A stretch of 64,000 nucleotides of DNA from Cannabis sativa (taxonomy: Eukaryota; Streptophyta; Magnoliopsida; Rosales; Cannabaceae): contig NC_083603.1 in the NCBI RefSeq assembly GCF_029168945.1, forward strand, positions 47,254,406-47,318,405. Direction: 5' to 3'. Below, piece by piece: positions 1,711 to 59,811 of the stretch. The notes beneath the pieces were generated by a model that had not been told where the DNA came from, did not search any database, and saw only the letters and a list, made by a program, of their open reading frames with translations. A program made the position numbers and the translations under genes. Within the stretch, counting starts at the first letter, position 1. Every line of letters begins with the position of its first letter.

Positions 1711-1769
1711 AAGTCACTAAATTCTTAGTGAGATCTTGAGGTTATTCCGTTTAACTTGTTTTGTGTGAG

Positions 1770-10233: not shown

Positions 10234-10234
10234 T

Positions 10235-25041: not shown

Positions 25042-27352
25042 TGTAACGCCCTTATTTAATAAAATAAAATATCATAAATAAACTAGCGTCAATGTACTAA
25101 TGTTGCCTTTATTTAAAAATAACAATTTTCAAAATATGGGTACCCAGTTGAAAACAAAGTGTCCCTATTTAAGTAAATTTAATAGAAAACTAAACGACAA
25201 CATCCCCAATATGTTTTATAAATTTAAAAGTGACTTTCAGCGGAAGATGGCCAAGACCACACGCAGTTACATGATCTCACGAGATACACCGCATGCTGTC
25301 CAGATTCAACTTGCCACCGAAAGTTTACCTGCTTACTTATCTGCACATGGGGAGTAAATAAGGGGTGAGCTGCAAAGCCCAGTAAGGAAAAAAAAATACC
25401 ATGTACAAGCACTCACACATCATAGCACAATCATATACATCAACCATACAACAAATCTATCATGTTTTTAAATAAAGGCAGCCACACTAATACAAAAATA
25501 TCACACACTCACACTCCAGCTTCCTTACAAGTCTGGAGTGTCTTACGTTCTTAACTTGAACCAGTACAAATAGTCAGTGCACCGTTACGTTCACTGCCCC
25601 ACTTACCACATCACCACACATGTGTGGTTTCCAACCACGTCCAAGTACTTGGAACGTGATTAAACAGCCATATACAATCCATCGACAAAACACTATTTCA
25701 TCGAAACTATCATATTCCACAGTTTCAAGACAATTTATTCAACCAGTCTCACTAAGTACTCAAACTATATAAAATGTACAAGTATAAAGTATAACTATTT
25801 TTTCTTACCTCAACTCCGCTGTAATTAACTATTACAATATCTTCTAGGCCCTATCAACAATTAGCGAACCCTTACACCCCCGATAAACTCTATATTTATA
25901 ATTCTTAATATAAAGTAAGTTTAGCTCAAAATTTGACTCATAAAATATTTGAATTAGAAATCTTATTGTTCACAAAGTTTTTAGATAATCGAAAAACCTT
26001 TCTAACTGTATAAAGATCATCAAAATCGGAGTTATAACCTAGGATTTATGGATATTTTGTTAAAACAGTTTCTTTAAAATCCTTGATCATGCCGATTTCT
26101 GGATACAACCCCAAAATAATAATTTTAAAAATAGTTACACCCCGATCCAAACAACACTTCATAAAAAAATGTAGCTCTTTGCTTAAGCTTTAAAATGAGA
26201 TAAATATCTTTCAAAATGAATCAAAATTTAGAGAGATATTGAGTTTTTACTAAAGTCACTTTTTCTGAAACAAAACTTAAAATGAGATATCCTAACCGAG
26301 TAAAGATATCGATTTTTGACAAGTAAGAACCCCAAATTAGGGAAAGGTTTCTTCAAAAAATATCGATTATCGAATTATCTTTCTAACGATGTCAAAATCG
26401 CTGGAAAAGAATAGATATTGAGAGATATCACACTTTTACTGAGGCAACATCAGAAGAAAATCTGAAAAAAAAAAAAACTGTAACTCGACAGCCAGTATGA
26501 AAACATGAATTTTTGACACCGAAATAATTAGAATTAGGGAAAAGGCTCTGCACAAAAAATGTAAATCATTAAATTATCTTTAAAATGGTACCTAGATCAC
26601 TAAAAATAGACATACAAGCAGAGAGATACGATTGTTTTACAAAACACTATTTCTCTGAAAACGAAAAAGAAATCATACTTGACGAAAATTTCACAACAAG
26701 GAACAGTTTCATACCTTAGAAATTGAATACTGTGACAAAGGCTTCCAATCAACAAATTTGAGTCCCTCAAAATCTCAATTGCTGGTTTACTTTTAACCTT
26801 TTATTTTATTGAAAATTTTCTTAAGTATCAAGAAAAAAAAAAGCAACTATGATAGTTGAGAGCAAGGATATGAGGCTTCAGAAGAGGGTCTAGAGAGTAA
26901 AGGATAATAGATTGGTACGTGATCTCAAAATATGAACTAATATTTACTTAATGTATCAGAAAAGTTAATTAGATATTAACAAAAATCAAATTTGAAAAAA
27001 AAAAAAAAAACTATCCTATCTTTTCTCTATTTGGTTACATATAAATTTGTTATCAATTTTTGTAAATTTTTGTATAACCACAAGTGGACCACTCCACCAA
27101 TGCATCTATGCATTTTAATTAATTTCTAATAATAAACCCTATCAGTGAACAAACCAATACAAGCACTATAATCACCTATACCATTAGCACACTATCAAAA
27201 CTCAATAACCACTATTAGCCAATAAAATATAAAGGATATACTTTTTTTATAATTATTAAGAAAATTATTTACACCAAAATAATTCAAATACCATTTATGT
27301 ATTCATATATAATTACATATATATTAATGAAGATTAAGTGTGAGGTATTACA
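25042..27352 (-). repeat. Right (5') LTR of the Ty3/gypsy chromovirus
   Basis: 2311 bp from TGTAACGCCC to GAGGTATTACA; on the minus strand TGTAATACC...GGGCGTTACA. Its second half aligns with 1-490 and 11442-12048. The flank to the right begins GAAGT; the partner flank lies outside the window, so the target duplication cannot be tested. Short open frames inside are chance. Confidence 0.9.
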
Positions 27353-29007: not shown

Positions 29008-30863
29008 TGTTGGAATTATTTTACCAGGATCTATATTTACTACCAAGTATGTTTGATTAACACCCTAATATGAATTCTAAAACAATGAAATAAACACATA
29101 AGAGTTTAAGAAAACCTTACATTGGGTGCAGCGGAATATTATGACTCATTCCGTTCAGATCTCTAGCCCTTGATTCCTTTCTGTAGCAGAGCATTACTAA
29201 AATCTGAACCTGGATCTCTTTCTCTCCTTCTTTGATGCTTATTTTCCATAGTCTTACATACTATGATTGAGCTACCACTTGATGTGTGTGGGCACTACTC
29301 ATCACTCAAAGGAATTTTGAAAAACGGAGAAGAAAGAGAGGGAAAGTGGCGGCTTCAGAGTGTTTGAGAGTGAAAGAAAATAATACAGTCATGTGTGTGT
29401 AAAACTTGAAGCCTTTACCTTCTATTTATAGAATACCACATAGGGTTAAGGTTGAATTACTTAGCATTTAAAAATGAAAAATAAAATGAGAAATAGGAAG
29501 CATAGTGGCCGGCCATGGAATAAGGAAACAAGCCTCTCACTTTTGCAACTTTCCTATTTTATCATTTTTAGTTTCCGATTCTCCAAAATTGCCAATTTTC
29601 TCATTCAATTACATAAATGTCAAATCTAATTATTTAATAACTATAATTAATTATTAAATAATTGTCATTTATTTTATTTATTAATAAAAACTAATCAAAG
29701 TTTTCCAATTAATAAATATACCCTTTAAACTCTCTATTTACTGTTTTACCCTTGCTTAGTGAAAATTCATAAAGTAGACATAGTCTAACTTTTAGAATTA
29801 TAATTGATTAATTAAAATCAATTAACTGAGTCCTACAAGCAGTATGGTCTCAACTATTATGGGGACCATGAGTCTATATAACTGAGATTCCACTAAGTCG
29901 AACCGAATTTACCAAGTAAATTCCCTAACTTATTAATTCCTTATTAAATCCACTCTTAGAACTTGGAATTGCACTCTCAGTCATATAGAACGCTCTATAT
30001 GTTCCATGATATAGACACGTCATTAGTTATCAATTGTTATAATCTTAATGTGATCAATGACCCTCTAATAGATTATCTACATTGAAAAGGCACTAAGTTA
30101 CCGTTACACCTTCAATGTATTTTATCCTTAAAACACTTAGCTCCGTATAAATGATATTTCAACAAAGTGAAATGAGATCTCCACCATTTATCTCTGTTTA
30201 GCCAAGCTCGAAGGATATCATTGTTTCACTTCTAAATTCCTATAGAAGTTATAGATTCCATATTTATGGTAGCGCTCCCACTCAATTGTACTATCATGTT
30301 CCCAAAATGTACGTATCACCCTGACCCAAAAGTAGGTTTAACTAACAAACCAAAGAACATGTATAGTACTCTTGAGATCGAACCTAACCATATCAGGATT
30401 AAGATCATTTGATCTAGGATCAACATGTGATATTGAATTGAATAGATATTACGGTAAGTTTTAATATATATAATCAAAGTTCAATATCGGTCCCTTCCAA
30501 TGTATACTCCATACATCCGATACTGGTAAACTTTGCCAATGTCCTGAAAATGACAAAACACTTTTCCAAGGTGTAAGAATACCTATCGCTGATTATACCA
30601 TGTCAGTCTAAATCCAGTGTTCTAACAAATCAGGGAATAAACTTTCGAACACATAATTAAGATTATATTCCACTGTGCTGACAACACTATAATCTTTAAC
30701 AAATTCATATGTTCTAGACTTAAAAAGAATTCTTACATTATATACATATAATCATGAAATAAATCATGTGAACCATGCAACATAAAATGTTATTTCTGAT
30801 CTTTATTAATAAGTAAATCTGATTATATTGAAATGGGTTTTATTTAGGACACAAAACCCAACA
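29008..30863 (-). repeat. Inner copia 3' LTR
   Basis: 1856 bp; on the minus strand TGTTGGGTTTTGTG...AATAATTCCAACA. The TATA box on the minus strand is the complement of CTATTTATAG (29422-29431), with GGCCGGCC (29507-29514) about 76 bp upstream of it. Very similar to 43575-44908 plus 46789-47317. Confidence 0.93.
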
Positions 30864-33641: not shown

Positions 33642-33646
33642 ATAAT

Positions 33647-35171
33647 TGATTAGTGGTTAAAAATACACTTTTATTTATTTTAAATGATAAAATAAATTGA
33701 GTTTTAATTGATATTTTCACGAAATTATTGTAATATATTTTATAAATGAAAATATTTGATTTTGATTCAATTTATGTCTTTCTTGTAGGAATTAAAGTGT
33801 ATTTTTGTTGAAAGAAAGAGGAAGGAGCAAAGTTGAAAAGAAATGAAGAAAAAAAATGGCATTTTTGTTGAAGTCCAAAGCAACCCTACTCAAAAAGGTT
33901 AAGCCTAGCCCATGAAGCTCATCATCAATTTTGTCTCTTCCAAAGCATGTGATGCAATGATGATAAGTCTAGGTCATCATCAACCCTATTTTCCTCTTCC
34001 ACACTCAACCTTCATCCAAAGAGTAGAAGTCAAAATCACAATGATAACAAAAATAATATTAATTTTATTTTTGATTTGAAATGTCAAATTTAATCTTAAT
34101 ATTTATTTTATAATCCCAAATTTTTATTTATTTATTTTTAGTCCTTTTATGGCTCTATAAATAGGAGCTCATTTTAGTAATTTTTGGAGTGTAATTTTTA
34201 GTGTAGAAAAACTATAGCAAAATTCTCTCAACTTTTCTTCTCATCTTTTCTCTTTAGAAATTTTATGAGAATGATTAGCATAATGGCCTAATCTTCCTTG
34301 GAAGGTTAGGGATGATTCCATATGCAAAGTGAGGTTATTTTGTATCTTTGATTCACTTTTTGTTGTAATGTTTATTTGAGTAATGCAAGTTCATATTCCA
34401 CTTTTATTTTTATGTTCTTCTTCCATCTATACTATCTATGCTATTATACCAAATATATATATAGACTTAGTCATGCTCTTTCTATATATTTTTATTTAGT
34501 GATTATAGTAATGGTAGTATTGCTCATTTCTATCTTTTATGTTCATTTTTATTTACTTTTTGTTAAATGATATATAGGTTTAGTCATGCTCTCCCTATGT
34601 GTCTAAAAATTAATAAAAGTAATATTAATGTTCATTTCCTTCACTATCACCTCCATCTCCATCTCTATCTCTTTGTCATTATTTTTACTAAAAATATATA
34701 GTGCTCTTTCTATGTGTTACTATTTAGTAAAAATAATATTGATGTTTAGTTTTATATTTAATCTTTTATTGCATTATTGCTTGATGTATAATGTCATTTC
34801 TAGGTTCTACATAAGATTAAATTATTTCTTTTATTTTTAAGAACTTGTATATTCAAAATATAATGAACTTTAATGTTACATCATTTGTGTCAACTTAGTG
34901 AATCAAAGGTACAAAATAGCTAAACAAGCATATGGATGATTCTTGAAGCCTTTCTCTCTTTTACTATTGATTACACATCTATTTGCTTTCTTTTAATATT
35001 TATTATCAAATTAAAAATCACAAAATCATTGGTTACTATTATCACTTATTATTAACCTTTTGTTTTTATTTTTCTACTAACGCTTTTGTCCATAATCACC
35101 TTCCTGTGGAATCGACCGCCCGATCTATACTACAACCACCGCTAGTGGAAGTCACATTTGGGCGTTAAACA
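33647..35171 (+). repeat. Athila-like 5' LTR
   Basis: 1525 bp, TGATTAGTGG...GGCGTTAAACA, directly followed by a 5-nt gap and the primer site. A TATA-like CTATAAATAG lies near 34154, followed by a CT-rich stretch. The inverted copy is at 38707-40238. Confidence 0.92.
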
Positions 35172-35176
35172 AATTT

Positions 35177-35194
35177 TGGCGCCGTTGCCGGGGA
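35177..35194 (+). other. Primer binding site (Asp tRNA type)
   Basis: TGGCGCCGTTGCCGGGGA, 18 nt, five bases after the LTR. This sequence is the known primer site of Athila-type and related plant gypsy elements, complementary to the 3' end of an Asp tRNA. Confidence 0.9.
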
Positions 35195-35956
35195 GGTAAT
35201 TTTTTAAAAAAAGCTTAGCGAAATCTACAATCAAGAGGTTAGTAATTTTTTTTGTTACATTTTATTTTCCTGTGAATATTAGCTTATATTGTGTAAATAT
35301 TTGTGAAGAAAAGAAAAAAAAAATATCAAGTAATTCAAAGTATGCTCTAAGGTTGCGGTTTTATCCGATCTTCCTTATCAGAAATGATTTCTTGATTAAA
35401 AAAAACACATATATATTTATATAATTTTTTTTATTTTCTTTTCCTAAAAAAAAAATTATTATTTAATTTTATAATAGCTATTGTTTAGTATTTTTATTTT
35501 TTTACTTTAGTACTTGTTATAGTGTGATAGTTTATATTATTTTTTGCTTTTTTGTTTATTATTATTATTTTTTTAGTTTAAAATTTCTTTTTCTTTATTT
35601 TAGATCTAGATTTTAGCAACTCTAAAAAAAAAAATCATAAAATACAAAAAACATATAAAAATCATAAAACACTTAGTATTTCTTACAACAATGTAATAAT
35701 ATATATGACACAAACCGAGTTTGTTCTGTCTAAGAAAAATTGGTTTTTAAATAAGATTTGCGTTAGTGTACCCTCCACTTTACCTGGGAACTTCGGTTCT
35801 GTCTAGGCAAGGTCGGGACGAAGCGGTACCTTGGCAACCTTTCCAATCGGCCTGGGAGCATTCTTGTGTTAGTCTTTGTAATATTGCATTTTTGTACCTT
35901 ATACTAAAAAAAAAATTAAAAAAAAAAAAAGAAACTATGAATAAAATAAAAGAGAA
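35195..35956 (+). other. Athila-like 5' leader
   Basis: AT-rich leader with poly-A tracts. A more GC-rich island at about 35765-35870 (TTTACCTGGGAACTTCGG and CCTTGGCAACC region) stands out and may be structured. No coding seen. Confidence 0.6.
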
Positions 35957-36814
35957 ATGAACGAAGAAGAGAAGCAACGTTTTGAGTTTTATTTTCCAAC
36001 ATACTATGCTTCATGTAGAAACTTTACAAATTATAGTACTACTGATGGTACCAATAATTTTAATGGTGCATTTCAACTTAGCGAAAGAGAAAAACTTCAA
36101 GCTCAAGTAAATTTATTAACTAGAAAATTAGATGTTTTGAAAGCTAAGTATGATGATACATATGAAGTTTATGAAGAACCTTATTTTGACTATGAAGTAG
36201 TTGATAATAAGAATGATAATCATAACTGGAAAAATTTTATTGACTATAGTTGGAAGTCTGAGTACAACTACAATGCACCAATTGATTTAGATTTTGCCGA
36301 GAAAGCTTATACGTTTTGTCATTCATCTCAATTTACCAATAGCAAATCTCTAGAGGAAAATAGTTCAACATTCTTTTCTAGTCTAGAGAATGAAAGAAAG
36401 ATGAATGAAAACCAAAGTGCTTTGCTCACTCAATTAGTAGAGGAAAATATGGAATTCAATGAACAAATTTCAAACAATGTTCTTCCTCCACAAATTGAGA
36501 TAATACCATCACCCTCTACCCTAATCTCTTGCAAACTCGATGGGGATGATGCTATTACTATTTGGAGTGACAATATTTCTTATCCTGAAATTCTTTCTAC
36601 CCTTCCAAATATCATTCCAAATGAAAACAAGTGTTATCATATTGATGTGATAGACACAGTTGTGGAGGAAATTTGTAAAATTTTCTCAAACAACCAAGCA
36701 TACCATTTCCTCCATGATTTTGAGAACAAATACTTTCTTTATCCTGAAAATTTCACCAATGCATCAATTCTTGAGACGAAGGATAAAAGAAAGTTCATTT
36801 TTGATACTGGATAG
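35957..36814 (+). CDS. ORF of unknown function in the Athila-like element
   Basis: 285 codons, ATG 35957, TAG at 36812-36814. The protein is acidic, rich in Asn, Glu, Phe and Tyr, with a probable coiled coil near residues 44-62 (SEREKLQAQVNLLTRKLDVL). I find no CCHC knuckle, no RT or integrase motif, and no membrane segment. The start follows a poly-A/T-rich leader and the frame is uninterrupted, unlike most of the region. It sits where gag would be. It could be a reduced Gag or a private protein of this non-autonomous family. The final residues FDTG resemble a protease start only by chance. I do not recognise it. Confidence 0.6.
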   Translation: MNEEEKQRFEFYFPTYYASCRNFTNYSTTDGTNNFNGAFQLSEREKLQAQVNLLTRKLDVLKAKYDDTYEVYEEPYFDYEVVDNKNDNHNWKNFIDYSWKSEYNYNAPIDLDFAEKAYTFCHSSQFTNSKSLEENSSTFFSSLENERKMNENQSALLTQLVEENMEFNEQISNNVLPPQIEIIPSPSTLISCKLDGDDAITIWSDNISYPEILSTLPNIIPNENKCYHIDVIDTVVEEICKIFSNNQAYHFLHDFENKYFLYPENFTNASILETKDKRKFIFDTG

Positions 36815-38339
36815 TACAATCATATAGTTGGTAGACTTACCTGAGGAGATCACTTCTGTCTACCAATGACTAATCAGGTTTTATCTTTATGTTTTTAGTA
36901 AGTTTATTTAAGTTATTTTATCTTTTTTATTTTCTATGTTTGTTTTGGGTTACTGTTATCAGGTTATCTCCACTCTCACTCCGTGCATATTATCGTCAAT
37001 CAAGTGTACGTTTTTCCCTATCTTTTTTCATTTCATATTTTTTGTGACATTGAGGACACTGTCTAATTTTGAGTTGGGGTGGTGAGCTCTGGTGAGCGTT
37101 CATTTGGAAAATTATAATTGTCTTGTTGAATTTTTAAGTCAAATTTTTCAAAATTATCTGAGCATGATAGTAAAATTACAGTTTGAGTCAATATTTGCTA
37201 TATTTTGTTACCAAGTTGTGATTTTCAGAGTTCTTTTGTGCACTTTCCAAACATGTGGTAAAATGGTTGTAAACACATATAGTTAAGAAAAATTTTGAGT
37301 GTAAAGTTTTTCATTTTTGGTGAGTTGTGAGAGTTGAGAAAACAACTTTTTGAACTTTCATTGATCATTTGAGTTGGTAAAGTTAAACTTTTGGAATTTC
37401 AAACATGACATTTACTAGAGGGATTAATTTATTGTCAAAAGAGTCTTTGTGTTTATTTCTTTGTAACTTTATTGTATTTCTTTATATCTTTATTTTTATA
37501 TGTTGTCTCTTGTCAAAAAAAAAAGGAGAAGAAGAAAAAAAAAAAAAGATCATCAAATAAAAAAAAAAAAATCATCAAAAAAAATATATATAATGAAAAA
37601 AAAAGAACAAGAGCAACATCATTTTATTTGGATTTTCAAGAAGTCTCCATCTTTTTTTTTTTTTGAGAAGAAAAAAAATAAAAATAGCAAAAGTAATATC
37701 ATTTTATTTCTATTTTCCTACATTCTTTCCATATTTAAAAAAAAAAAAATCATGTTAGTTTATTTTATTAAAAAAAAAAAAAAAGAAAGAGAAGCATCAC
37801 ATGTCTCTCTAAAGAAAATAAAAATTGTTATTATATTTCTTTATTTATTAGTTAGTTAGTTGGCTCTTTATTTTGTGAGTTTTTCATGTAAATCCCAAAG
37901 GTTGTTTGTCATTTGAATTCTATTGGTTTGATATGTCTATCTTGTGATCAATATTTGTTCAAACTGTTTGTCCTAAAAAGTTTATCCTCTCTCATTTGTG
38001 CGTTAATTGTTACATTTCCAACTCCAAAGAGTGTCACCCTTCCAATATAAATACTTTCAATACCCGTGAAAAAAAAAATTGGAGTTGAGACCTTTACACT
38101 TTTGAGATTTTTTGATACTATTTGTGTTAAGACTTGAAATAAAATAAATACAGTTTGGTGCACACACACACAACTCTATTGTTACAACTGAAATAACATT
38201 GATAGCAATCTTTAACTCTCTACTAATATTTTGAAAATGCTTGGATATTTTTGCGTGATTTGACTTGTTTATTCAACTCGATTATTCTTTTTCTTCGCTT
38301 GAATTGCTAGGGACTAGCAATAAGCTAGTTGGGGGTTGT
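36815..38339 (+). other. Athila-like 3' non-coding region and polypurine tract
   Basis: No ORF supported. GACATTGAGGACACTGTCTA (37048-37067) followed by GTTGGGGTGGTGAG is a motif that often marks the end of the coding region in this group. Poly-A runs at 37515-37570 and 37735-37790 are simple sequence. The polypurine tract is AGTTGGGGGTTG (about 38328-38339), directly before the LTR start TGATTAGTGG. Confidence 0.7.
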
Positions 38340-38686
38340 GATTAGTGGTTAAAAATACACTTTTATTTATTTTAAATGATAAAATAAATTGAGTTTTAAT
38401 TGATATTTTCACGAAATTATTGTAATATATTTTATAAATGAAAATATTTGATTTTGATTCAATTTATGTCTTTCTTGTAGGAATTAAAGTGTATTTTTGT
38501 TGAAAGAAAGAGGAAGGAGCAAAGTTGAAAAGAAATGAAGAAAAAAAATGGCATTTTTGTTGAAGTCCAAAGCAACCCTACTCAAAAAGGTTAAGCCTAG
38601 CCCATGAAGCTCATCATCAATTTTGTCTCTTCCAAAGCATGTGATGCAATGATGATAAGTCTAGGTCATCATCAACCCTATTTTCC
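38340..38686 (+). repeat. Truncated forward 3' LTR of the Athila-like element
   Basis: Matches the first 348 bp of the 5' LTR and stops at TTTTCC, where it meets the inverted primer site with the shared bases TCC (38684-38686). Confidence 0.92.
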
Positions 38687-40238
38687 CCGGCAACGGCGCC
38701 AAAATTTGTTTAACGCCCAAATGTGACTTCCACTAGCGGTGGTTGTAGTATAGATCGGGCGGTCGATTCCACAGGGAGGTGATTATGGACAAAAGCGTTA
38801 GTAGAAAAATAAAAACAAAAGGTTAATAATAAGTGATAGTAGTAACAAATGATTTTGTGGTTTTTGTTTTGGTAATAAATATTAAAGGAAAGCAAATAAA
38901 GGTGTAATCAATAATAAAAGAGAGAAAGGCTTCAAGAATCATCCATATGCTTGTTTAGCTATTTTGTACCTTTGATTCACTAAGTTGACACAATGATGTA
39001 ACATTAAAGTTCATTATAATTTGAGTATACAAGTTCTTAAAAATGAAAGAAATAATTTAATCTTATGTAGAACCTAGAAATGACATTATACATCAAGCAA
39101 TAATGCAATAAAAGATTAAATATAAAACTAAACATCAATATTATTTTTACTAAATAGTAACACATAGAAAGAGCATGACTAATCCTATATATTTTTAGTA
39201 AAAATAATGACAAAGAGATAGAGATGGAGATGGAGGTGATAGTGAAGGAAATGAACATTAATATTACTTTTATTAATTTTTAGACACATAGGGAGAGCAT
39301 GACTAAACCTATATATCATTTAACAAAAAGTAAATAAAAATGAACATAAAAGATAGAAATGAGCAATACTACCATTACTATAATCACTAAATAAAAATAT
39401 ATAGAAAGAGCATGACTAAGTCTATATATATTTGGTATAATAGCATAGATAGTATAGATGGAAGAAGAACATAAAAATAAAAGTGGAATATGAACTTGCA
39501 TTACTCAAATAAACATTACAACAAAAAGTGAATCAAAGATACAAAATAACCTCACTTTGCATATGGAATCATCCCTAACCTTCCAAGGAAGATTAGGCCA
39601 TTATGCTAATCATTCTCATAAAATTTCTAAAGAGAAAAGATGAGAAGAAAAGATGAGAGAATTTTTGCTATAGTTTTTCTACACTAAAAATTACACTCCA
39701 AAAATTATTAAAATGAGCTCCTATTTATAGAGCCATAAAAGGACTAAAAATAAATAAATAAAAATTTGGGATTATAAAATAAATATTAAGATTAAATTTG
39801 ACATTTCAAATCAAAAATAAAATTAATATTATTTTTGTTATCATTGTGATTTTGACTTCTACTCTTTGGATGAAGGTTGAGTGTGGAAGAGGAAAATAGG
39901 GTTGATGATGACCTAGACTTATCATCATTGCATCACATGCTTTGGAAGAGACAAAATTGATGATGAGCTTCATGGGCTAGGCTTAACCTTTTTGAGTAGG
40001 GTTGCTTTGGACTTCAACAAAAATGCCATTTTTTTTCTTCATTTCTTTTCAACTTTGCTCCTTCCTCTTTCTTTCAACAAAAATATACTTTAATTCCTAC
40101 AAGAAAGACATAAATTGAATCAAAATCAAATATTTTCATTTATAAAATATATTACAATAATTTCGTGAAAATATCAATTAAAACTCAATTTATTTTATCA
40201 TTTAAAATAAATAAAAGTGTATTTTTAACCACTAATCA
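38684..40238 (-). repeat. Inverted PBS and LTR at the right end of the Athila-like element
   Basis: Read on the minus strand: a full LTR from TGATTAG (ending at 40238) to TTAAACA (38707), a 5-nt gap, then exactly the 18-nt primer site ending at 38684. This is the content of a plus-strand strong-stop DNA. It is the inverted partner of 33647-35194, with scattered substitutions. Confidence 0.9.
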
Positions 40239-43200
40239 ATAATCATTCTAGCAACCTTTTATTCGATCAAGATTGGAATCCAGTGTTGTCCCGTTTAGGC
40301 GAGAGTCAAGGCTATTCTATCTTATGAGCTTCCACCATTGTTTCATATTTTGTAAGTCAAAAATAGTCATCACCATTAGGGTGATCAATACCATATAAAA
40401 CACTTACAAATATACTTATCTTTCGAGATTAAACGGTGCTAACTTGCTGATGAACGTTCCTCCATTAGGGAGGATTACTCACTAAAACAAAAGCTATGTA
40501 AAACCAACAATGGAGATCGAATGTCCTAATAATAAAGCTCATTATTTAATGAAGGTTGTATTTTCTCCTAATATTTATTTTAATCAATTTATTTTAAATA
40601 TATATTTATTTAATTAAATTTTCAATTTAGAATTAAAAATTCTAAATATAAATTTTAATGTAATATTTATAAATTATACTTAGATGGATATGAAAATAAC
40701 TTGAATTATTTCCATCTTAGTAATAATTTCCATAAATATATAGAAACTTATTCAATTTAAGTTGTTTCAAAATTAATTTAAATTAATTTACAACTCAAAT
40801 TTAATTTTCTATAAATATATATTGCATTTCGAAAAATAAAGTGTATAAGAATACTACTTTCGAAAATGCTTTAAATAAAATAAAAATAAATCCTGGAAAA
40901 TTGCTCTAATTTTATGTTGGCCCAAAATTAATTAATAAAAATTAATTTTCAACAAAAACTATAAATTTCCTATTTAATTAAATATCTAAGAAAAATTTCA
41001 AATATTTAAGTATCATGATTAAAAATCAACTTAAATATTAATTTTCTATTTAATTAAATACACTAGAAAAATACTTCAAGCAAAACAGATAATAACTATC
41101 TAGACTTTCATTGAATAATTAATTCAATTTCTAATTATAATATATTTTAGTTCATTTATTTTAATTAATCATTAAATGAAAAAATTATTGATTTAAGTTG
41201 GTCCAAAATTAAAATAAATAATTTTCAACTTTAATCTATTTTTCAAATAAAATTCGAAATTTCTGCATTAAAGAAATGCAATTTCGAAATTTTGGGAAAA
41301 AGATTAATAAAATAAAATAAAATATATTTTGAAAATTATTCAGATTTAAGTTATTCTGAAATAAGATTCCAAGCTTAAGATAATTTTCAACTTTAATTAA
41401 ATAACATAACAATATTTAAGTATCATGATGAAAATCAACTTAGATATTGAAATTTTTAATTTAATTAAATGTATTAAATTCAAGAGATAAATAATTAAGT
41501 AGAGAGGGAACTTAATTATTAATTCTAGTTTAATACTAGGAAAATATTCTAAACTTAGATTGTACCAAAATTAATTATTAAACAATTAATTTCACAATCA
41601 ATGATATTTTCCTATTTTATATTAGAAATAATAATTAGTATAGAAATAACTATCTAGAATATATATCATTAACTAAGTGTTTTTCTAAAATTAACTTTAA
41701 AATATTAAAATGAAAAATAAATTTCATATATTTTAAAAGTTAATTATGTTGCTAATTCAATTTTAATTAGGTTAGACTAATATAATTAACCTAATACAAT
41801 TATTTAAATAAGGCAAATGGGCCTTCATAATTGGGGTAGTTCATGTGAGGGGGAGCTGGGTTCAGTATGTCGTACCCACTTCTATTGGCTCCCAACTCTC
41901 ACACAAGGCCCAAAAGAGAGGAATTTAACCTTTAAATAAACAATTGTTATTCATTGAATAAACCCAAATCTAATTGGGCCTAAATAAAATTACTTATGTC
42001 AAATTTTATTTTAACAACCTAGTCCATTTACTTAGTAAAACTTAAATGGGCTTCCTATATGCATCTAAGCCCAATAGCAAACATATAGGCTCACACAGGT
42101 CAAATGATTTGGATGGACCCTATCATGTTACTAGGTTTACACAGATGAAAGAAGTACAAAATTTACCTGTTACAAATTATTTATAAGATCTATTGACAAT
42201 TGGACTATGATTAAAATCAGATTATTGGATCTGTCAACAAGTTAATCATAGCAATTTAGATCAAATAAATAATAGGTTTGTTAAAAAATTTTGAATAAAC
42301 AATATAAAAATAAACAAACATTGTCCATGTAACAGATGTGAAAATAAGATATTAATATAATTAAATTATTATTCTTAAACTAACCAACTAAATTTTTGAA
42401 AATTTAAACCTTAAAATCTCAAAAAATAAAGGAAACTAATTTTAAAATATCTAGGTTTATTTGAATCAAATTAAATTAAATATCTAATAAGATCAATGAT
42501 TTGAAAGAAAAAATCTTCAATATCACTTTCAAATCTTATAATTTAATAAAATAAACCAATTTCAAAATAGATTTGGTTAGATAATTCGAATAATAATTAC
42601 CATAATTATATGTCAAAATATCTCAAATCAAGCAATATTTAAATTTCTACAAAAATATCTAAGTTATTTAAATATTTAAGATATGATTTATAAATTTGCA
42701 ATAAGAAAAAAATGATATATATAGAAAAATATCATTTTTAAACTTATAATTTATAAATAATTAAATATTTAACAAAATAACAAATTTTTAATTTGAAAAT
42801 ATTATGGTAAGTGTATCTATAAAAATATCTATGTTAATTTCAAATTTATTAATTATTTAATTTGTCATATAAGATAATTTTAATATAATATTTTAAATAA
42901 AAAGACAAAGTTATCTTTTAATTTAAAATATGTTAAATATTAAAATATATAATCTTATAATTAAATAATAAATAAATATTAAAGAAGTTAACAAATTTTT
43001 AAATCTGACCATAACAAAAAATATTTAAAATTGGAAATATTCCAAAAAAGAAATATTTAAAATTGGAAATATTTCAATTTAGAAATATTTAAAATTGGAA
43101 AAAAGAATTTTGGGAAACAATCCCATGAAAAAATTGGATTTTTGGTGAAAAAACCCCAAAAATTGCAATTTTTGGGTATTTGCCCAAGAGGGGCTGCATG

Positions 43201-43574: not shown

Positions 43575-44908
43575 TGTTGGAATTATTTTACCAGGAACTA
43601 GATTTACTACCAAGTATGTTTGATTAACACCCTAATATGAATTCTAAAACAATGAAATAAACACATAAGAGTTTAAGAAAACCTTACATTGGGTGCAGCG
43701 GAATATTATGACTCATTCCGTTCAGATCTCTAGCCCTTGATTCCTTTCTGTAGCAGAGCATTACCAAAATCTGAACCTGGATCTCTTTCTCTCCTTCTTT
43801 GATGCTGATTTTTCATAGTCTTACATACTATGATTGAGGTACCACTTGATGTGTGTGGGCACTACTCATCACTCAAAGGAATTTCAAAAAACGGAGAAGA
43901 AAGAGAGGGAAAGTGGCGGCTTCAGAGTGTTTGAGAGTGAAAGAAAATAATACAGTCATGTGTGTAAAACCTGAAGCCTTTACCTTCTATTTATAGAATA
44001 CCACATAGGGTTAAGGTTGAATTACTTGGCATTTAAAAATGAAAAATAAAATGAGAAATAGGAAGCATAGTGGCCGGCCATGGAATAAGGAAACAAGCCT
44101 CTCACTTTTGCAACTTTCCTATTTTATCATTCCTAGTTTCCAATTCTCCAAAATTGCCAATTTTCTCATTCAATTACATAAATGTCAAATCTAATTATTT
44201 AATAACTATAATTAATTATTAAATAATATATTGTCATTTATTTTATTTATTAATAAAAACTAATCAAAGTTTCCCAATTAATAAATATACTCTTTAAACT
44301 CTCTATTTACTGTTTTACCCTTGCTTAGTGAAAATTCATAAAGTAGACATAGTCTAACTTTTAGAATTATAATTGATTAATTAAAATCAATTAACTGAGT
44401 CTTACAAGTAGTATGGTCTCAACTAGTATGGGGACCATGGGACTATATAACCGAGCTTCCAATAAGTCGAACTGAATTTACCAAGTAAATTCCCTAACTT
44501 ATTAATTCCTTATTGAATCCACTCTTAGAACTTGGAATTGCACTCTCAGTCATATAGAACGCTCTATATGTTCCATGATATAGACACGTCATTAGTTATC
44601 CATTGTTATAATCCTAATGTGATCAATGACCCTCTAATAGATGATCTACATTGAAAAGGCACTAAGTTACCGTTACACCTTTAATGTATTTTATCCTTAA
44701 AACACTAAGCTCCGTATAAATGATATTTCAACAAAGTGAAATGAGATCTCCACCATTTATCTCTGTTTAGCCAAGCTCGAAGGATATCATCGTTTCACTT
44801 CTAAATTCCTATAGAAGTTATAGATTCCATATTTATGGTAGCGCTCCTACTCAATTATACTATCATGTTCCCAAAATGTACGTATCACCCTGATCCAAAA
44901 GTAGGCTT
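43575..44908 (-). repeat. Inner copia 5' LTR, part 1
   Basis: Starts (plus strand) TGTTGGAATTATTTTACC, directly after the primer site, and matches 29008 onward. Broken at 44908 by a solo LTR with target site GGCTT; continues at 46789. Confidence 0.93.
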
Positions 44909-46788
44909 TGTTGGGTTTTATGCCCTAAATAAAACTCTATTTCATTGTAATCCAGATTATTCAATATCAATAAAGTAACATAAGTATTTTTCATTCATTT
45001 GTGTATGTTTTGGTTCATTTAATCAATTGTTTGTCTATTTGATTTATAAATTCATCCAAACCCTTTTTCACATACTTGATCATGTTTATTGTGTTGTCAA
45101 CACAGTGGAAAGTAAACATGACTATGTGAATAAAGTATTTCTAGATTTATCAGAACACTGGGTTTTACTGATATGACAATCTACAACAGAGTTTACTTGC
45201 ATTCGGAGAAATGTTATGTTCTTTCCAGAACATAGGTTAAAGTAAAGCTCAGGTTGGATGCATGGAGTATGCATTGGAATGGACCGATATTGAACTTTGA
45301 ATTAGATTTTTGAAACTTACCGTAAATATCTATTCAATTCAATATCATAAGTTGATCCTAGATCACATGATCGTAATCCTGATATGGTTAGGCTCAATTT
45401 CAAGAGTGTTATTCGTGTTCTTTGATTTGTTAGTTAAGCCTAATTTTTGGTCAGGGCAATACATACATTTTGGGAACACGGTAGTGCGATTGAGTGGGAG
45501 CGCTAACATAAATATGGAATCTATAGCTTCTATCTGGCGAATAGTAAGCAAAGGGTGATTTCCTTCGAGCTTAACCAAACGAGATAAATGATTGAGTACT
45601 CATTTCACTTAGTTGAAATATCATTTATACAGGGTTAAGTGTTTTGAGGATAAAATACATTGTAGGGTGTTACCGTAATTTAGTCCCTTTACAGTGTAAA
45701 TCATCCATATAGAGGATCATTGATCACATTAGGATTATAACAATGGATAACTAATGATGTATCTATATGGTGGAACATATAGAGCATTCTATATACTGAG
45801 AGTGTAATTCTGAGTTCTATGTGTGGATTCAACGAAGAATTAATAAGTCACTGAATTTAAGTGGTAAATTCTAGATCTGCTTATTGGAAGCTCGGATATA
45901 TAGACCCATGGTCCCCCCACTAGTTGAGATAATATTACTTGTAAGACTCATTTAATTGATTTTAATTAATCAATTAAAATTCTCAAGATAGACTGTGTCT
46001 ATTTGAGAATTTATCACTTATTAAGGACAAAACAGTAAATAGAGATTTTGAAGGGCATATTTATTAATTAGGAAACTTTAATTAGTTTTATTATTAATAA
46101 AATAAATGACAATATATTATTTGATAATTAATTTTAATTATTAAATAATTAGATTTGACATTTATGTGGTTGAACAAAGGAATTGGCAGTTTTTGACAAA
46201 ACAGGAAACTATCAGTATAGGAAAAGGAAAGTTGGAAAAGTGGCAAGCCTTGTTTCCACAATGCCTAGGCCGGCCACTTAAGTTCCCTTTTCCCTTTGAT
46301 TTTTTCAATATTAAATGTCAATTAATTCAATCATAGCCCTGGGTGGTCTTCTATAAATAGAAGGCAAAGGCTTCAGTATTCAACACAACTGATACACAAC
46401 ATTATTCTGACAGAATTTTCTCTCTGAAAATTCTCTCTGAGCCCCCACCCTCTCTCTCTCTATTCCTTCACTGTTTCGAAATCTATAAGTGCTAGAGTAG
46501 TGCCCACACACATCAAGTAATACCTCAATCATAGTGAGGAAGGCTGTGTAGAATTCAGAAACAACAAAGAAGGACTATCGGGCTCAGATCTTGATTATAC
46601 TCTGCTACAGAAAGGAATCAAGGGTTAGAGATCTGAGTGTGAGGAGACATATATTCCGCTGCACCCAATGTAAGATTTCTGACACTCTTATGTGTTAAAT
46701 TTTCTATCGTTTTAGAAGTTCAATATTAGGTTGTTAAATCAACATACTTGTGAGTAGATCTAAGTTCCTGGTAAAATAACTTCCAACA
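44909..46788 (+). mobile_element. Copia solo LTR
   Basis: 1880 bp, TGTTGGGTTTTATGCCC...AACTTCCAACA, flanked by GGCTT (44904-44908 and 46789-46793). TATA box CTATAAATAG at 46351-46360; GGCCGGCC at 46268-46275, 83 bp upstream. Related to the solo LTR at 22192 but clearly another copy. No internal part remains. Confidence 0.94.
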
Positions 46789-47317
46789 GGCTTAACTAAC
46801 AAATCAAAGAACATGTATAGTACTCTTGAGATCGAACCTAACAATATCAGGATTAAGATCATATGATCTAGGACAAACAGGTGATATTGAATTGAATAGA
46901 TATTACGGTAAGTTTTAATATATCTAATCAAAGTTCAATATCGGTCCCTTTCGATGTATACTCCATACATCTGATACTGGTAAACTTTGTCAATGTCCTG
47001 GAAAGGACATAACACTTTTCCAAGGTGTAAGAATACCTATCGCTGATTATACCATGTCAGTCTAAATCCAGTGTTCTGACAAATCAGGGAATAAACTTTC
47101 GAACATATAATTAAGATTATATTCCACTGTGCTGACAACACTATAATCTTTAACAAATTCATATGTTCTGGACTTAAAAAGAATTCATACATTATATACA
47201 TATAATCATGAAATAAATCATGTGAACCATGCAACATAAAATGTTATTTCTGATCTTTATTAATAAGTAAATCTGATCATATTGAAATGAGTTTTATTTA
47301 GGGCACCAAACCCAACA
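46789..47317 (-). repeat. Inner copia 5' LTR, part 2
   Basis: Continues the LTR broken at 44908 and ends CCCAACA at 47317, followed by the target duplication GTTCA. Confidence 0.92.
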
Positions 47318-48560
47318 GTTCAGAATTGGTAAAAGAGGAATTCTGAAAATATCTGAATGTACTATGCAAAGGCAAAATGTACTATTTACCTTACCATTGG
47401 TTCCTTGGCACACTCTCCCTTTGCAGAGAAAGAACATTTTGTCATTTTGCCTTCTAGGCAAGATTCACAAACCGGTAATTCACCTAAGGTGACATTTTTC
47501 GATGGACCACCTTTGGTTAACCTGTGAAGTCTATCATAGCCTATATGACCAAGACGTAAGTGCCATAGATATGTTTCGTCTTCATTATCGATCTTTTGCT
47601 TTTTGTGGTTTCTAGGTTTAGCTACCTTAAACAGTTCGTTATTAATCAGAAATGGTTCATCTGGTCTAAGAACATAAAGCCCCTGTTCTATAGATGCAAC
47701 ACAAATTTGAATGTCATTTCGAGAAGTGATAGAACAGAATTCGAAAAATTCAATTTGTATTGTTGCAACAGTAAACATGAAACAGAAATCAAGTTACTAC
47801 TGAAACTTGGAATAAATAAGACATTGTCTAAATCCAAAATTGTATTCTAAAACTTGAGTTTGGCTTTTCCTCTAGCTCTAACTGATACCATTTTGCATTA
47901 CCAACTTTAAGTTTCAACTCTTCGAATTTTAAATAATTCAGTTTTCAAGCAATTGCAATGAACAACAGACATGGTTAGTAGATCTAGAATAAAAAATCTA
48001 AATGGATTTGTCATTCTCTAAAACACATGATTTAAAAACTAAAGCATTGGAATCACTGCATAACTGTTTTTGGATTGTTCTTAATGCTGGTTCAATCTGT
48101 TGTGAAAGATAATCTGAGTAAGTGGAATCACTTTCTCTATCTTTTTCAACTGAGCCTGAAGTAGTAGGATTGTCGGAGGAATTATTCTCAATATCTTCAA
48201 CTTTCCTTTTGCCCTTATCTGCATTACTGGAGAAGGATCTCCATGCAAGTGACAATGTCCGTTCATAAGCACGCAATTCAGCGTCCAGCTTGTCTAGTCG
48301 GACGAGTTCCAATTGTTGATCACAAATTGGTTAAACTCAGGTGATAAGCTTTTGAGAATAAAATGAACTCTTTACTCTCCAGATAAAGCAATTCCTAGCA
48401 TAGCTGCTTTCTGGAATTTCATGTTCATCATGAGCAAGTGTGAAGTGATACTCTGACCAGGAGTCATCTTCACACTTTGAAGTTCATTCCTAAAGGCATA
48501 CTCTAGATGAGGATTGGGGTGTGGGTTGTACATTTTGATACTACAAATATCAATAAACAG
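47318..48560 (-). pseudogene. Outer copia element: gag and pre-integrase remnant
   Basis: Continues the pol at 29007 on the minus strand. 47778-47386 carries the pre-integrase region with DETYLWHLRLGHIGYDRLHRL and the zinc ligands CESCLEGKMTKCSF. 48312-47998 and the region up to about 48545 carry gag: EYAFRNELQSVKMTPGQ, FVINNW, then a Lys/Ser-rich tail. Frameshifts and stops are frequent; the protease region between gag and pre-integrase is not recognisable. Next to the nested element's edge a short stretch (GCATAGTACATTCAGAT on the minus strand) occurs on both sides, a small older duplication. Confidence 0.82.
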
Positions 48561-49442
48561 AAATAAATTATTGGTTCAATAAATTCATACACAAGTTCAG
48601 AAAATAACCAGTAAAGCAAATATGTTTGCAAAAATATCAAAACAAAACATATTAATTATATTTCAAGGTTTCCAACATAATGAAATACAGTGTCTCGGTA
48701 GGCGAGAGTCAAAGATAACAGTAGTTGAATAGAGTAGTTAGCTCATCTAAAATAGACACCATTTTAGCAACCTTTTATTTGATCAAAATGAGAATCCAAC
48801 GTTGTCCTGGTACGCGAGAGTCAAGGTTATTCTCATTTTATGAGCTTCCACCATTGTTTCATATTCTGTAAGTTTATTTCTAAGTAGTCACCGTGGGGGA
48901 GAGTCTAATAGAAACGAAAACTTACAAAATACTTATCATATGAGATCTTACGGTGGTAAGTGCTTTCAACGAATAACCATCCATACAGGGGACGAAGTCT
49001 AGCGTCTCGAGGTTATATTGAAAATATTTAACCATTGTAAGACCGACAATGGAGATCGAATATCTCTTTTATTACAGCTCATTATTTAAAATAATGTATT
49101 TTTAATTAATCATTTATTTTAATATATATATTTTAATAATGAAAATTACTTAATTTAAGTTGATCCAAAATTAATTAAAAAAATTAATTTTCAAACAATA
49201 ATTTCGAAAATCCATTTATAAATAATTATAAAATTTCAAAATTATATAAAATATAATAAAATAAATTTCTGGAAAATATCTAATTTAAGTTGTTCTAAAA
49301 TAACAAAATTTTGAACTTAAATAATTTTCCAAAATTTAATTAAATATCAAATTAAGTATCTTGAACTAATACCTTAATTTGAAAAATATTCCTATTTAAG
49401 TTGATCCAAAATTAATAAATTTTCAACTTAAAAATATTTTAA

Positions 49443-55803: not shown

Positions 55804-57617
55804 TATGTCTCCCCCTCATGCACATATGATCCATAATTCTTTTGGTGATAATAGATCTCATAAGATTATTGTTATCACTTTTAAAATATCACCATATATG
55901 ATCTTTGATCATATATTTTCTATAACTCTTCCAGAGTATGTATGGACTTCTAAATTATAGATGAGGGGTTCGTGGAACATTAGTCTTTATCCAACTAATT
56001 GTATCATTCATGTGTGTACACAACTTTGTTCATACGAAAATTTAAAATTTCAAGTAGATATGAACATAACACATTAATGGTACTATAAATTTTCATTTGT
56101 GATACTGATGGTACTCCAAGACTATATATTTGTACCATTCTTGTTGTATGATCTTAATTTCCATATCAAATGATCATATATTTATAATTCTTGATACATA
56201 TGAAGTACTTCAGAACTTCAATAATAATGAACAAACTTTATACATTTAATATTTCTCGATATACAAAAGAAATAAAAGTTTGTTCTTCAATTAATCAAAA
56301 ACTCTTCAAGAGTCTATCACAACGTATAATTTACGAATTTATACTGCATAGACAACCAGAGGTGTTTTTCAAACAATAATTTACTTACATGTCTTTATTT
56401 CATACAAAGATCTTTGTCATATAGTGCGCGCGACTTAAAATTTATATCACTTAAGATATGTATTAAATTCTTCTAGAATTTTTAGAGTAGGCTTATTTCA
56501 AATTCTCACTATATTAGGAGCTCCAAATGAATAACTTTTGTTGCAACATTTATGTGACGCTTATAAATCCTCATAAAATATATTCCAGGCTATAATCAAA
56601 TCATGATTATATTTTCTCAATATTTAAGCCTTACTTCAATCAATCTCATGTCTATGCAAACTTTGTACAATAATTCATTGTGTACAAATACATATATGCA
56701 AATTTCTCATTATAAATATTTATTTGCACACCCTACAGGTCTTACTTCACTTTATGTGAGTAAATTTGCCTGGACTGCGTCATAATATTTTGGCCAAAAA
56801 TAAAAAGTATGTTGATTTGATAATTCTCGACAAATCTAATACCATGATCCTTGCTATCTCATGTTAGTTTATTGCATATGCACACATTCAATATTTATTA
56901 TCGACAAAAATTTCAATAAATGATAATTTCCTCCCATATTGACATAACTTATAGAGATCTGTTTAAATTACATATTTTTCAAATATATTTATCATTTATA
57001 GGTACCTATATAGAATCAATTTAGGGATTCAATTATGATCAAATGTGTTATGTCTAACTTCTCTTGGGAGTCTCTTCAAGTACCGTCTTCATCACGGTTA
57101 TCATTTTAATCATCAATACTTTATAACATTAAGGTATCTTTATGGGTACCTCTATATTTAACAACTTCAGGATAAATCAAATGAACATTTATTAATAATT
57201 TCTATATTGTTCATTTACGCTTCAGGCGTTTTCAACTCATTCTAACTCAACTTTGAATAATATTGATTTGCAGTTGGTACATATCATTTTGAACTATATT
57301 GTTCTTATATACTTTGTGCAAGGATCATTTTTTAAAAATTATCATCGATCCCAACTACTTCTCTCCCCCTGATCGAGAGAATTTTTAAAAATTGTGATAT
57401 CTAATAATATTAATATACCTGTAGGGATTTCAATATATCACAATGAATCAATATTTATTTAAACTCATATATATTATATGACATTGAACTTCAGGTTCAA
57501 TAAACTTCAGTTTCAAGTTCAATCCTTATGAACTTAATTCATTTCTAAGAATGAGTCATACGTGTATAATTAGAAATACATAAATTTACACATTTTGTAA
57601 ATGCATGATCATATAAT
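55804..57617. other. Non-coding interior of the short-LTR copia element
   Basis: 1.8 kb, AT-rich, no ORF with recognisable motifs. CTCCCCCT occurs at 55803-55810 and 57362-57369, resembling polypurine tracts on the minus strand. The rest holds no gene I can support. Confidence 0.55.
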
Positions 57618-59040
57618 TGTTGGGTTTTGTGCCCTAAATAAAACCCTTCACAATCTGATTAGTTATCAATATCAGAAATTTGAAGTAATTTATGTTTGCA
57701 TGAATTTTACATGCTAATGGTTTAATATGTTTATTACATTTACACACAAAATCAGTTAAGTCCAGATCATATGTTTATTCACAATTACAGTATCGTCAAC
57801 ACAGTGGAATGTGATTGTGATCATATGAATTAAAAGACTAAGTCCCTGTTTCATCAGTGTTTTGGATTTACACTAATGTGATAATTAGTGATGATGTGTA
57901 CTTACACTTGGAGTAAGTGGTATGTTCTTTCCAGGACATTAGTAAAGTATACTAGTTTCGAATGTATGGAGTATACATTGGACTGGACCGATATTGCAAC
58001 TTAGTTAAGATATTATAAACTTACCGCTATATCTTTCCAAGTCAATATCAGTAGTTGATCTTAAGATTAAAAGAATCTAAATCCTGATATGCTTAGGCTC
58101 AACTCAGGAGTGCTATTCATGTTCTTTGATTTATTAGTTAAGCCTACTTTTGGGTCAGGGTGATACGTATATTTTGGGAACATGATAGTATGATTGAGTG
58201 GGAGTGCTGAACATAAATATGGAATCTATAGCTTCTACTGGTGTATAGAAGTCAAGTGATGATTCCCTTCGAGCTTAGCTAAATAGAAGTAAATGGATGA
58301 GCTCTTATTTAAGTGACTAATTCTTAGATCACTAAACATCATTTACAAGTAGCTAAGTGTTTTAAGGGGCAAAATATATTGAGGGGTGAGAACGGTAAAA
58401 TTATCCCATCTCGATGTAAATCATCTATATAGAGGATCTTTGATCACAATAAGATTATAACAATGGTTAAATGAGATAGCATATCTATATCGTGGAACAT
58501 ATAATATGCTCTATATAAGTCTGAGAGTGCAATTCTAAGTTCTAAGAGTGGATTCAACGAAGAATTAATAAGTAAGAATTTACTTAGTAAATTCGGTTCA
58601 CTTATTGGAAGCTCAGCATATAGATCCATGGTCCCCATTCTAGTTGAGACTATACTGCTTGTAAGACTTAATAATTGATTTGTGATTAATCAATTATAAT
58701 TCTAAAGTTAGACTATGTCTGATTTGTGAATTTTCACTAAGGAGGGGCAAAATTGTAAAGAAAAGAGATTCTAAGTTTATTTATTTATTAATAGACTTTA
58801 TATGTCTAATTAATAATTAAATTAAATGAAAATATTGTTTAATAATCTATTTTAGTTATTAAATAATTAGTTTTGGCATTTAAATGGTTAGAATTGGAAA
58901 ATTGGCATTTTTGAGAAAATAGAAATAAAATTTGTGAAAACTGCAAAAACCAAGTGGGGCCCATTACACACCATGGTCGGCCACTTAAAGTGGTTTTTCA
59001 AATTGATATTTTCATTATTTTAATGCCAGATAATTCCTAA
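57618..59040 (+). repeat. LTR 1, 3'-truncated
   Basis: Starts TGTTGGGTTTTGTGCCC; matches 61926-63342. At about 59035-59041 it passes directly into gag sequence, so the TATA box, leader and end of the LTR are deleted. It holds TGGGGCCC near 58955. Confidence 0.9.
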
Positions 59041-59811
59041 CGAAAAATCAGAAGTGCCGTCTCCAGAAGTGCCGGGGGACAATGCATCCAAAGCTGTGAA
59101 AGAAAAGTATGAGCGTTGGCAGAAAGCAAATGACAAAGCTCTATACTTTATGCTTTCCAGCATGGTTGACACCCTTAAAACTCAATTTTCTAAAACCGAA
59201 AAGGCTGCTGAAGTAATGACGAAGTTAACTGAGCTATTCGGTAGGGCATCTCTTCAGTCTCGCTTTGACGCGACTAAGAAATATATCAATGCACGAATGG
59301 AACCCCATCAAAACGTGCGTGATCATGTTCTCCTCATGGCAAGTTATTTTCAAGAAGCCCAGGATCATGGTGCTGAAATGGATCATACTACTCAAGTAAG
59401 CCTTATCTTGAATAGTCTGACTCCAGCATTTCTGCCCTATACATCAAATTATGTCATGAATAAAAAGGACATAGACTTTCATGAGTTAGTCAATGACCTT
59501 CAGACATATGAAAATTTGATTGGAGGACCCAAGAAGAAAGGGAGTAAGCCTCAAAATTCTGGGAATGGTAATGGGACGGTCAAACCTGAAGCAAATGTTG
59601 CCTCTGCTTCTAAACCCAAATCAAAGAAGAAGTGGAAAAACACCAAGAAGCGTGCTAAAGCCATGAAAAACAAAAAGACTGCTGCTTCTGGTGATACACT
59701 CAAAGGAAAGTGTTTCTACTGCAATGAGAAAGGTCATTGGAAACCCCAATGTCCTAAACTTCTTGCAAAGAAACAAGGTATTTCTTTCTATAAACTTTAA
59801 GAGTTTTAGTG
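59036..59811 (+). pseudogene. gag: Copia gag, N-terminus deleted
   Basis: An open frame of about 255 codons to TAA near 59800, entered without an ATG because of the deletion at about 59040; the GTG at 59054 is not a start. It carries a UBN2-like domain (KLTELFGRASLQSRFDATKK, then SLILNSLTPAFLPYTSNYVM), a Lys-rich linker and a CCHC knuckle at 59711-59752 (CFYCNEKGHWKPQC). It is otherwise clean. After the knuckle, AAACAAG/GTATTT is a good splice donor. Confidence 0.88.

What the first reader, a model, noticed from the sequence alone, without database searches (positions are those of the whole stretch)
33642..40243. Retroelement insertion with two facing U3 ends, explained by a misprimed plus-strand strong-stop DNA
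Seen: ATAAT on both sides; a forward LTR at the left and a reversed LTR at the right, so both outer ends are the same LTR start (TGATTAG). The reversed arm consists of LTR, the 5-nt gap and exactly the 18-nt primer site, ending at 38684. It is joined to a forward 3' LTR cut after 347 bp, and the two share TCC (38684-38686). Known: plus-strand strong-stop DNA contains exactly LTR plus an 18-nt copy of the tRNA. Inference: its 3' end GGA annealed to TCC in the LTR of the plus strand instead of to the minus-strand primer site, and was extended, giving a DNA with identical ends that integrase then inserted normally. I do not know a description of such a product in plants.
Basis: partly seen in the sequence, partly recalled or inferred. 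Interest (0 to 1): 0.86.

Follow-up and report, generated by a model that had tools for sequence, protein, structure and literature searches.

The report
Jumping gene with two mirrored ends
A young plant retrotransposon (probably hemp or a near relative) inserted itself as a malformed DNA whose two outer ends are the same end facing opposite ways, and its inner joint stops where a normal half-finished copying intermediate would stop, so it looks like a fossil of two copying intermediates fused before insertion.

Summary
ATAAT flanks a complete forward LTR (33647-35171), an internal region, a forward LTR cut after 345-348 bp, then inverted PBS (18 nt), gap and complete LTR (38684-40238). A diverged copy of the target repeat in the window aligns across the insertion point, so this was one integration of one DNA. 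It missed one thing: the two complete LTRs differ by 3 substitutions in the first 1055 bp but 14 in the last 470 (roughly U5), so the strong-stop DNA and the main cDNA probably came from different templates. Best model: two plus strands from co-packaged RNAs met 3' end to 3' end (TCC/GGA), primed each other, and gave a DNA with two U3 ends that integrase accepted. Which 3' end primed, and with which polymerase, is undetermined. Single copy; no reads seen; own-genome search did not complete. A new variant of known template-switch insertions.

The parts
33642..33646 (.). left target-site duplication ATAAT
33647..35171 (+). LTR_A, complete forward LTR (1525 bp, TGATTAG...TTAAACA); TATA-like CTATAAATA at LTR position 509, AATAAA at 966
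   Evidence: R and U5 limits are inferred from these motifs
35172..35176 (+). 5-nt gap AATTT between LTR and PBS
35177..35194 (+). primer binding site, 18 nt (tRNA-Asp type, name recalled)
   Evidence: L001 and L002, found by this very pattern, leave the window's sequence at base 20 and base 19
35195..38338 (+). internal region without recognised gag-pol; PPT-like GTTGGGGGTTG just before 38339
   Evidence: (L001 shares the PPT/LTR-start segment, 44 of 53 identical)
35957..36814 (+). ORF of 285 aa; all 4 hits at E <= 0.001 are Cannabis sativa (best 86% identity over 100%)
   Evidence: no Pfam family above its cut-off
38339..38686 (+). LTR_C, forward 3' LTR cut after 345-348 bp, 348/348 identical to LTR_A
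38684..38686 (.). TCC shared by LTR_C and the inverted arm: the junction microhomology
38684..38706 (-). inverted 18-nt PBS (38684-38701) plus 5-nt gap (38702-38706)
38707..40238 (-). LTR_B, complete inverted LTR (1532 bp); 3 substitutions from LTR_A over positions 1-1055, 14 after
40239..40243 (.). right target-site duplication ATAAT
48540..49226 (+). diverged, uninterrupted paralogue of the target repeat (stand-in for an empty site)
   Evidence: (joined flanks, 574 nt, align over their whole length as one match at 71.5% over 611 columns, crossing the join; 1-nt gaps lie beside the join)

Best explanation
Two plus-strand DNAs of one retrotransposon family, made in one particle from two different RNAs, met 3' end to 3' end. 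One was a plus-strand strong-stop DNA (LTR_B + gap + 18 nt, 3' end ...GGGGA). The other was an elongating plus strand (LTR_A - internal - LTR_C) that had reached about position 348 of its 3' LTR (...TTTTCC). Three bases (TCC/GGA) paired and DNA synthesis completed both strands. Both 5' ends of the joined molecule are plus-strand starts laid down by the PPT primer, so the product has a U3 end at each side. Integrase joined both ends to a target with a 5-bp duplication. Shown by sequence: anatomy, TSD, continuity of the target repeat, 3-nt overlap, end at PBS base 18 (15-18), uneven divergence of the two complete LTRs. Inferred: two templates, co-packaging, which 3' end primed, which polymerase, and strand transfer by integrase with two U3 ends.
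For: Identical 5-bp TSD with exact LTR starts at both outer borders, and a paralogue that runs through the target site, place the joint before integration. The arm is LTR + gap + 18 nt and its longest reading stops with the PBS. Two other plant-like contigs with this PBS leave the window's sequence at base 19 (L002) and base 20 (L001); they were found by a pattern ending at base 18, so they show only that the shared stretch is not longer. LTR_C = LTR_A 348/348, while LTR_B has 1 difference there. LTR_A against LTR_B: 3 substitutions in the first 1055 bp, 14 in the last 470 (p = 1.7e-5; free change point reached by 0 of 2000 shuffles). [quoted passage not shown] The forward break is one of 19 of 1505 LTR positions with 3 or more terminal matches to the arm start; as a priming site it ties for ranks 4-7 of 1515 LTR positions. 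Precedent: recombinant LTRs in ONSEN extrachromosomal DNA (PMC5668417); strong-stop transfer between co-packaged genomes proposed for HIV-1 asymmetric LTRs (PMC9278108).
Against: Single copy; no reads seen; own-genome search did not complete. Three bases is little pairing: three LTR positions pair better (-3.9 to -4.2 against -2.4 kcal/mol), and in the internal region all 8 listed of 3134 positions are as good or better (list cut at 8). The uneven divergence could come from later gene conversion or uneven mutation. The split at 1055 was chosen after seeing the data (the change point was free). The paralogue is only 71.5% alike. (12 of 103 papers listed) had no occurrence of 'two U3 ends' or 'U3-U3' in those listed, so I have no precedent for such an integration.
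Confidence: 0.6

Rival explanations
1. One reading: the strong-stop DNA's 3' GGA misprimed on the LTR of a longer plus strand of the same cDNA and was extended; the overhanging rest of the 3' LTR was later removed.
For: Same anatomy; GGGGA can pair with TCCTC at LTR 346-350 (three normal pairs, a G-T and a further G-C), the only TCC[CT]C among 17 TCC in LTR_A.
Against: The same-cDNA form does not predict the uneven divergence of the two complete LTRs. It also needs removal of about 1.2 kb of 3' flap. By energy the site only ties for ranks 4-7 of 1515.
Confidence: 0.16
2. Host microhomology end joining of two cDNA ends (a broken or unfinished main cDNA and a cDNA ended at PBS base 18) before integration.
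For: A short overlap is usual for such joining; random pairs of breaks give 3 or more in 9%.
Against: A cDNA whose strong-stop DNA is still on its minus strand would carry its internal region beyond LTR_B; here the molecule stops exactly at the LTR_B start, so only the strong-stop strand seems to have been used.
Confidence: 0.16
3. Two neighbouring elements in opposite orientation fused by deletion or inversion after insertion.
For: Facing LTR pairs from separate insertions are expected in plant genomes; two U5 types would fit two elements.
Against: Both borders carry the same 5-bp repeat (chance about 0.003) and the joined flanks match one uninterrupted repeat; two independent insertions would have different TSDs, as argued in PMC1950507.
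Confidence: 0.04
4. Assembly artefact from a fold-back read or collapsed repeat.
For: No reads available here.
Against: A fold-back copies LTR_A nearly letter for letter and mirrors the flank; LTR_B differs from LTR_A by 17 substitutions and 4 indels, and the right flank is different sequence that continues the target repeat.
Confidence: 0.04

Closest known systems
Template-switch complex LTR retrotransposons (Sabot and Schulman 2007, PMC1950507, whole text read)
   Same: Aberrant reverse transcription joins two copies before integration; 5-bp TSD round the whole; outer LTRs alike
   Different: Those have a third, internal LTR between two complete core sequences, one orientation being given for each complex, with a switch between R regions; here one LTR is inverted, there is one internal region, and the joint is at the PBS end
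HIV-1 proviruses with asymmetric LTRs (Joseph et al. 2022, PMC9278108, passages and part of the discussion)
   Same: Intact 5' LTR with a shortened 3' LTR; strong-stop DNA of one RNA copy proposed to act on the other; a few proviruses with inversions are also counted
   Different: Their 3' LTR deletions start upstream of the 3' LTR; no inverted LTR arm is described in the passages I read
Autointegration products with an inverted segment (Shoemaker et al. 1980; title seen in reference lists only)
   Same: Inverted retroviral segment formed without chromosomal integration
   Different: As I recall, the joint is an LTR terminus made by integrase; here the joint is the PBS end to an internal LTR base
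LTR pairs in opposite directions mentioned in cucumber (PMC4600303) and grape (PMC7166211), one passage each
   Same: Opposed LTRs of one family close together
   Different: Structure, TSDs and joints are not described in those passages; they may be separate insertions

Membership tests
LTR retrotransposon insertion (tRNA-primed, non-autonomous) | LTR with TG...CA ends, PBS after it, PPT before the 3' LTR | tested here: met
   the PPT is a G-rich GTTGGGGGTTG, shared in part by L001
LTR retrotransposon insertion (tRNA-primed, non-autonomous) | 5-bp target-site duplication | tested here: met
LTR retrotransposon insertion (tRNA-primed, non-autonomous) | two complete LTRs in direct orientation | tested here: not met
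   one forward complete, one forward cut, one inverted complete
LTR retrotransposon insertion (tRNA-primed, non-autonomous) | gag-pol in the internal region (autonomous members) | tested here: not met
   two ORFs of 80 aa or more lie in the element; the 285-aa one has no Pfam match above cut-off; the other (119 aa, low-complexity) was not scanned
Athila lineage of Ty3/gypsy | reverse transcriptase phylogeny | not testable with these tools
   no pol recognised in the element; the tRNA-Asp PBS is a recalled resemblance only
Template-switch complex (PMC1950507) | flanking TSD round the whole complex | tested here: met
Template-switch complex (PMC1950507) | outer LTRs highly similar, from one cycle of reverse transcription | tested here: inconclusive
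   first 1055 bp near identical, last 470 bp not
Template-switch complex (PMC1950507) | third internal LTR and two complete core sequences | tested here: not met
Recombinant complex of two adjacent insertions | no matching TSD | tested here: not met
Autointegration product | inner joint at an LTR terminus (recalled) | tested here: not met
   joint at the PBS end
[quoted passage not shown]
   the 3-nt overlap leaves 15-18 open

The most novel reading that the evidence does not exclude
Two-U3-ended cDNAs, made when a plus-strand strong-stop DNA of one co-packaged RNA and an elongating plus strand of the other prime each other at their 3' ends, are a regular by-product of plant retrotransposition. 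Integrase inserts them as ordinary substrates, and tools that demand direct LTRs pass over them. Each such insertion fixes the strong-stop end and the stalling point of the second plus strand almost to the base.
Probability: 0.35. Interest if true: 0.7.

Novelty: new variant of a known kind. Interest (0 to 1): 0.5.

Why it matters
If right, this is a genomic record of a plus-strand strong-stop DNA in a plant, with its 3' end readable to within three bases. It shows an apparently normal integration from two identical U3 ends, and two cDNAs interacting in one replication cycle. It also gives a simple search (inverted LTR arms ending at PBS base 18) by which strong-stop intermediates, co-packaging and integrase end requirements could be studied from assembled genomes.

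Tried and rejected
Scans for the LTR start (22 nt) and PBS (21 nt) in viral contigs: 0 and 0 stretches, near relatives of the window's genome possibly left out by the tool. PBS in genome contigs: 2 stretches, both 36.5% GC contigs in bacterial assemblies and probably plant contamination; ARAGORN found no tRNA gene in either. Other copies of the LTR in the window: none beyond the three described, at E <= 1e-5 and 60 or more columns.

Rejected: two adjacent insertions joined later (same TSD, target repeat continuous in a paralogue); autointegration (joint is not an LTR terminus); fold-back assembly error (LTR_B is not a copy of LTR_A and the flanks differ). The idea that the joint lies at the best priming site of the LTR was tested and is only partly true: it ties for ranks 4-7 of 1515. 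The first impression that it is the only TCC[CT]C in LTR_A overstated it.

Literature: ten searches of an open-licence PMC library. Several listings were cut (for example 20 of 49, 10 of 8,151, 20 of 129, 12 of 103), and I saw titles and starts of abstracts. None of those told of an inverted LTR arm ending at the PBS. Most subscription papers, where older work on aberrant retroviral DNA would be, are not held.

Changed on checking: the PBS control from L001 and L002 is weaker than I first wrote (pattern-selected; L001 shares one base more), so confidence went from 0.62 to 0.60 and the first two rivals from 0.15 to 0.16 each.
Full report
What is there. The stretch 33642-40243 is one LTR retrotransposon insertion of unusual build. 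From left to right: TSD ATAAT; LTR_A (33647-35171, forward, complete); gap AATTT; an 18-nt PBS; 3.1 kb of internal region; a G-rich PPT-like stretch; LTR_C (38339-38686, forward, identical to the first 348 bp of LTR_A); then, sharing TCC with it, the inverted PBS (38684-38701), inverted gap, and inverted complete LTR_B (38707-40238); TSD ATAAT. Both outer borders are LTR starts (TGATTAG).

One integration. Besides the matching TSD (chance 0.0028 at local composition), the host sequence itself testifies. The two flanks, joined with one ATAAT, align over their whole 574 nt as one match (71.5% over 611 columns) to a diverged copy of the same repeat at 48572-49161 (48540-49226). The match crosses the join; only 1-nt gaps lie beside it, and the copy does not itself read ATAAT there. 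At that resolution nothing but the element and the duplicated bases separates the flanks.

The arm's end. The longest reading of the inverted arm stops at PBS base 18; with the 3-nt overlap the true end could be base 15 to 18. Two plant-like contigs found in bacterial assemblies (L001, L002) carry the same PBS. They were found by a pattern ending at base 18, so sharing it is by construction; what they add is that the likeness goes no further: after base 18 the window reads ggtaatt, L001 gcgccat (one more base shared), L002 ctattaa. That the primer is tRNA-Asp, and that copying of the tRNA stops at the methylated A58 leaving 18 nt, is recalled knowledge. L001 also shares the segment round the PPT and LTR start (44 of 53 identical), which supports the LTR start at 38339.

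Two templates. In ordinary reverse transcription the LTRs of one cDNA derive from one minus-strand LTR and are identical at birth (established knowledge). LTR_A and LTR_B differ by 17 substitutions and 4 indels. Three substitutions lie in positions 1-1055 and 14 in 1056-1525 (p = 1.7e-5 for an even spread; this split was chosen after seeing the data). With a free change point the best break is after position 1185, and 0 of 2000 shuffles of the 17 positions do as well. A TATA-like motif at 509 and AATAAA at 966 put R at roughly 540-990 and U5 after it (inference). The divergent part thus lies in U5, copied only from the 5' end of an RNA, while U3 and R are nearly the same: what two minus-strand starts on two related RNAs would give. 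LTR_C agrees with LTR_A at the one site in its reach where A and B differ (position 153). Later gene conversion of one U5 is the main alternative and cannot be excluded without family members.

Mechanism. The simplest scheme that makes both outer ends LTR starts is a meeting of two plus strands by their 3' ends, because the 5' end of a plus strand is the PPT-defined LTR start. The strong-stop DNA ends in GGGGA-3'; a plus strand that had reached position 348 of its 3' LTR ends in TTTTCC-3'. TCC pairs with GGA at both extreme 3' ends; filling in both gives the observed molecule, with two U3 ends. Priming from the strong-stop DNA alone, or a jump of the nascent plus strand onto it, give the same sequence. 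The forward break is one of 19 of 1505 LTR positions with a terminal match of 3 or more. As a priming site it ties for ranks 4-7 of 1515 LTR positions; three are clearly better, and the 8 listed of 3134 internal positions are as good or better. Host end joining is less economical, because a cDNA still carrying its strong-stop DNA would bring its internal region beyond LTR_B, and none is there. The final step, a 5-bp TSD with both ends exact, looks like an ordinary concerted integration with two U3 ends.

Host and family. The internal ORF (285 aa) has four hits at E <= 0.001 among 292 candidates, all Cannabis sativa, best 86% identical over its whole length, so the window is from Cannabis or a near relative (inference). 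No Pfam family passed its cut-off in that ORF, so the copy looks non-autonomous. The few differences in U3-R suggest a young insertion; no date was computed.

What is known. Sabot and Schulman (PMC1950507, whole text) describe four template-switch complexes with TSDs, each with a third internal LTR and two core sequences; none is described as inverted inside. Joseph et al. (PMC9278108; passages and the first of two parts of the discussion) found 26 of 88 HIV-1 proviruses with unequal LTRs and propose that strong-stop DNA of one RNA copy acts on the other. Sanchez et al. (PMC5668417; abstract and one section) show pairwise recombination of ONSEN members, with recombinant LTRs in extrachromosomal DNA. 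A cucumber study (PMC4600303, one passage) removed two candidates with LTRs in opposite directions during curation, and a grape study (PMC7166211, one passage) suspects opposed LTRs side by side; either may be separate insertions. Other papers were seen only as passages (PMC12789967, PMC2857682, PMC3187697, PMC10069891, PMC2151762). Nothing seen in the ten search listings told of an inverted LTR arm ending at the PBS; several of those listings were cut.

Limits. One copy, one assembly, no reads, no other family members: the own-genome search did not complete.

Noticed in passing
491-11441: Probable copia-type element: direct repeats 491-1696 and 10235-11441 (97.4%), ORFs 2146-3303 and 3412-6624; its flanks match a paralogue at 26251-27352 with a 5-nt overlap. 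The copia label is by eye from the ORF, not from a family search.
   Followed up: no
43575-47317: An LTR-like repeat (96.9% and 95.7% to 29008-30339 and 30334-30863) is split by a related repeat unit 44907-46788, apparently a solo LTR inserted in a relative.
   Followed up: no
57617-59035 and 61925-63343: Two direct repeats 96.8% identical with a gag-like ORF (by eye) at 59054-59800 between them: another probable LTR element.
   Followed up: no
L001 1-3922 and L002 1-5605: Contigs in Streptomyces clavifer and Blastococcus endophyticus assemblies with 36.5% GC and a plant-type LTR retrotransposon PBS (L001 also with a PPT/LTR start like the window's): probable plant contamination.
   Followed up: partly
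34455-34720 and 39131-39462: Short degenerate repeated units (containing TTAGTCATGCTCT) inside the LTR; the 9-nt indel between LTR_A and LTR_B lies at one of them.
   Followed up: no
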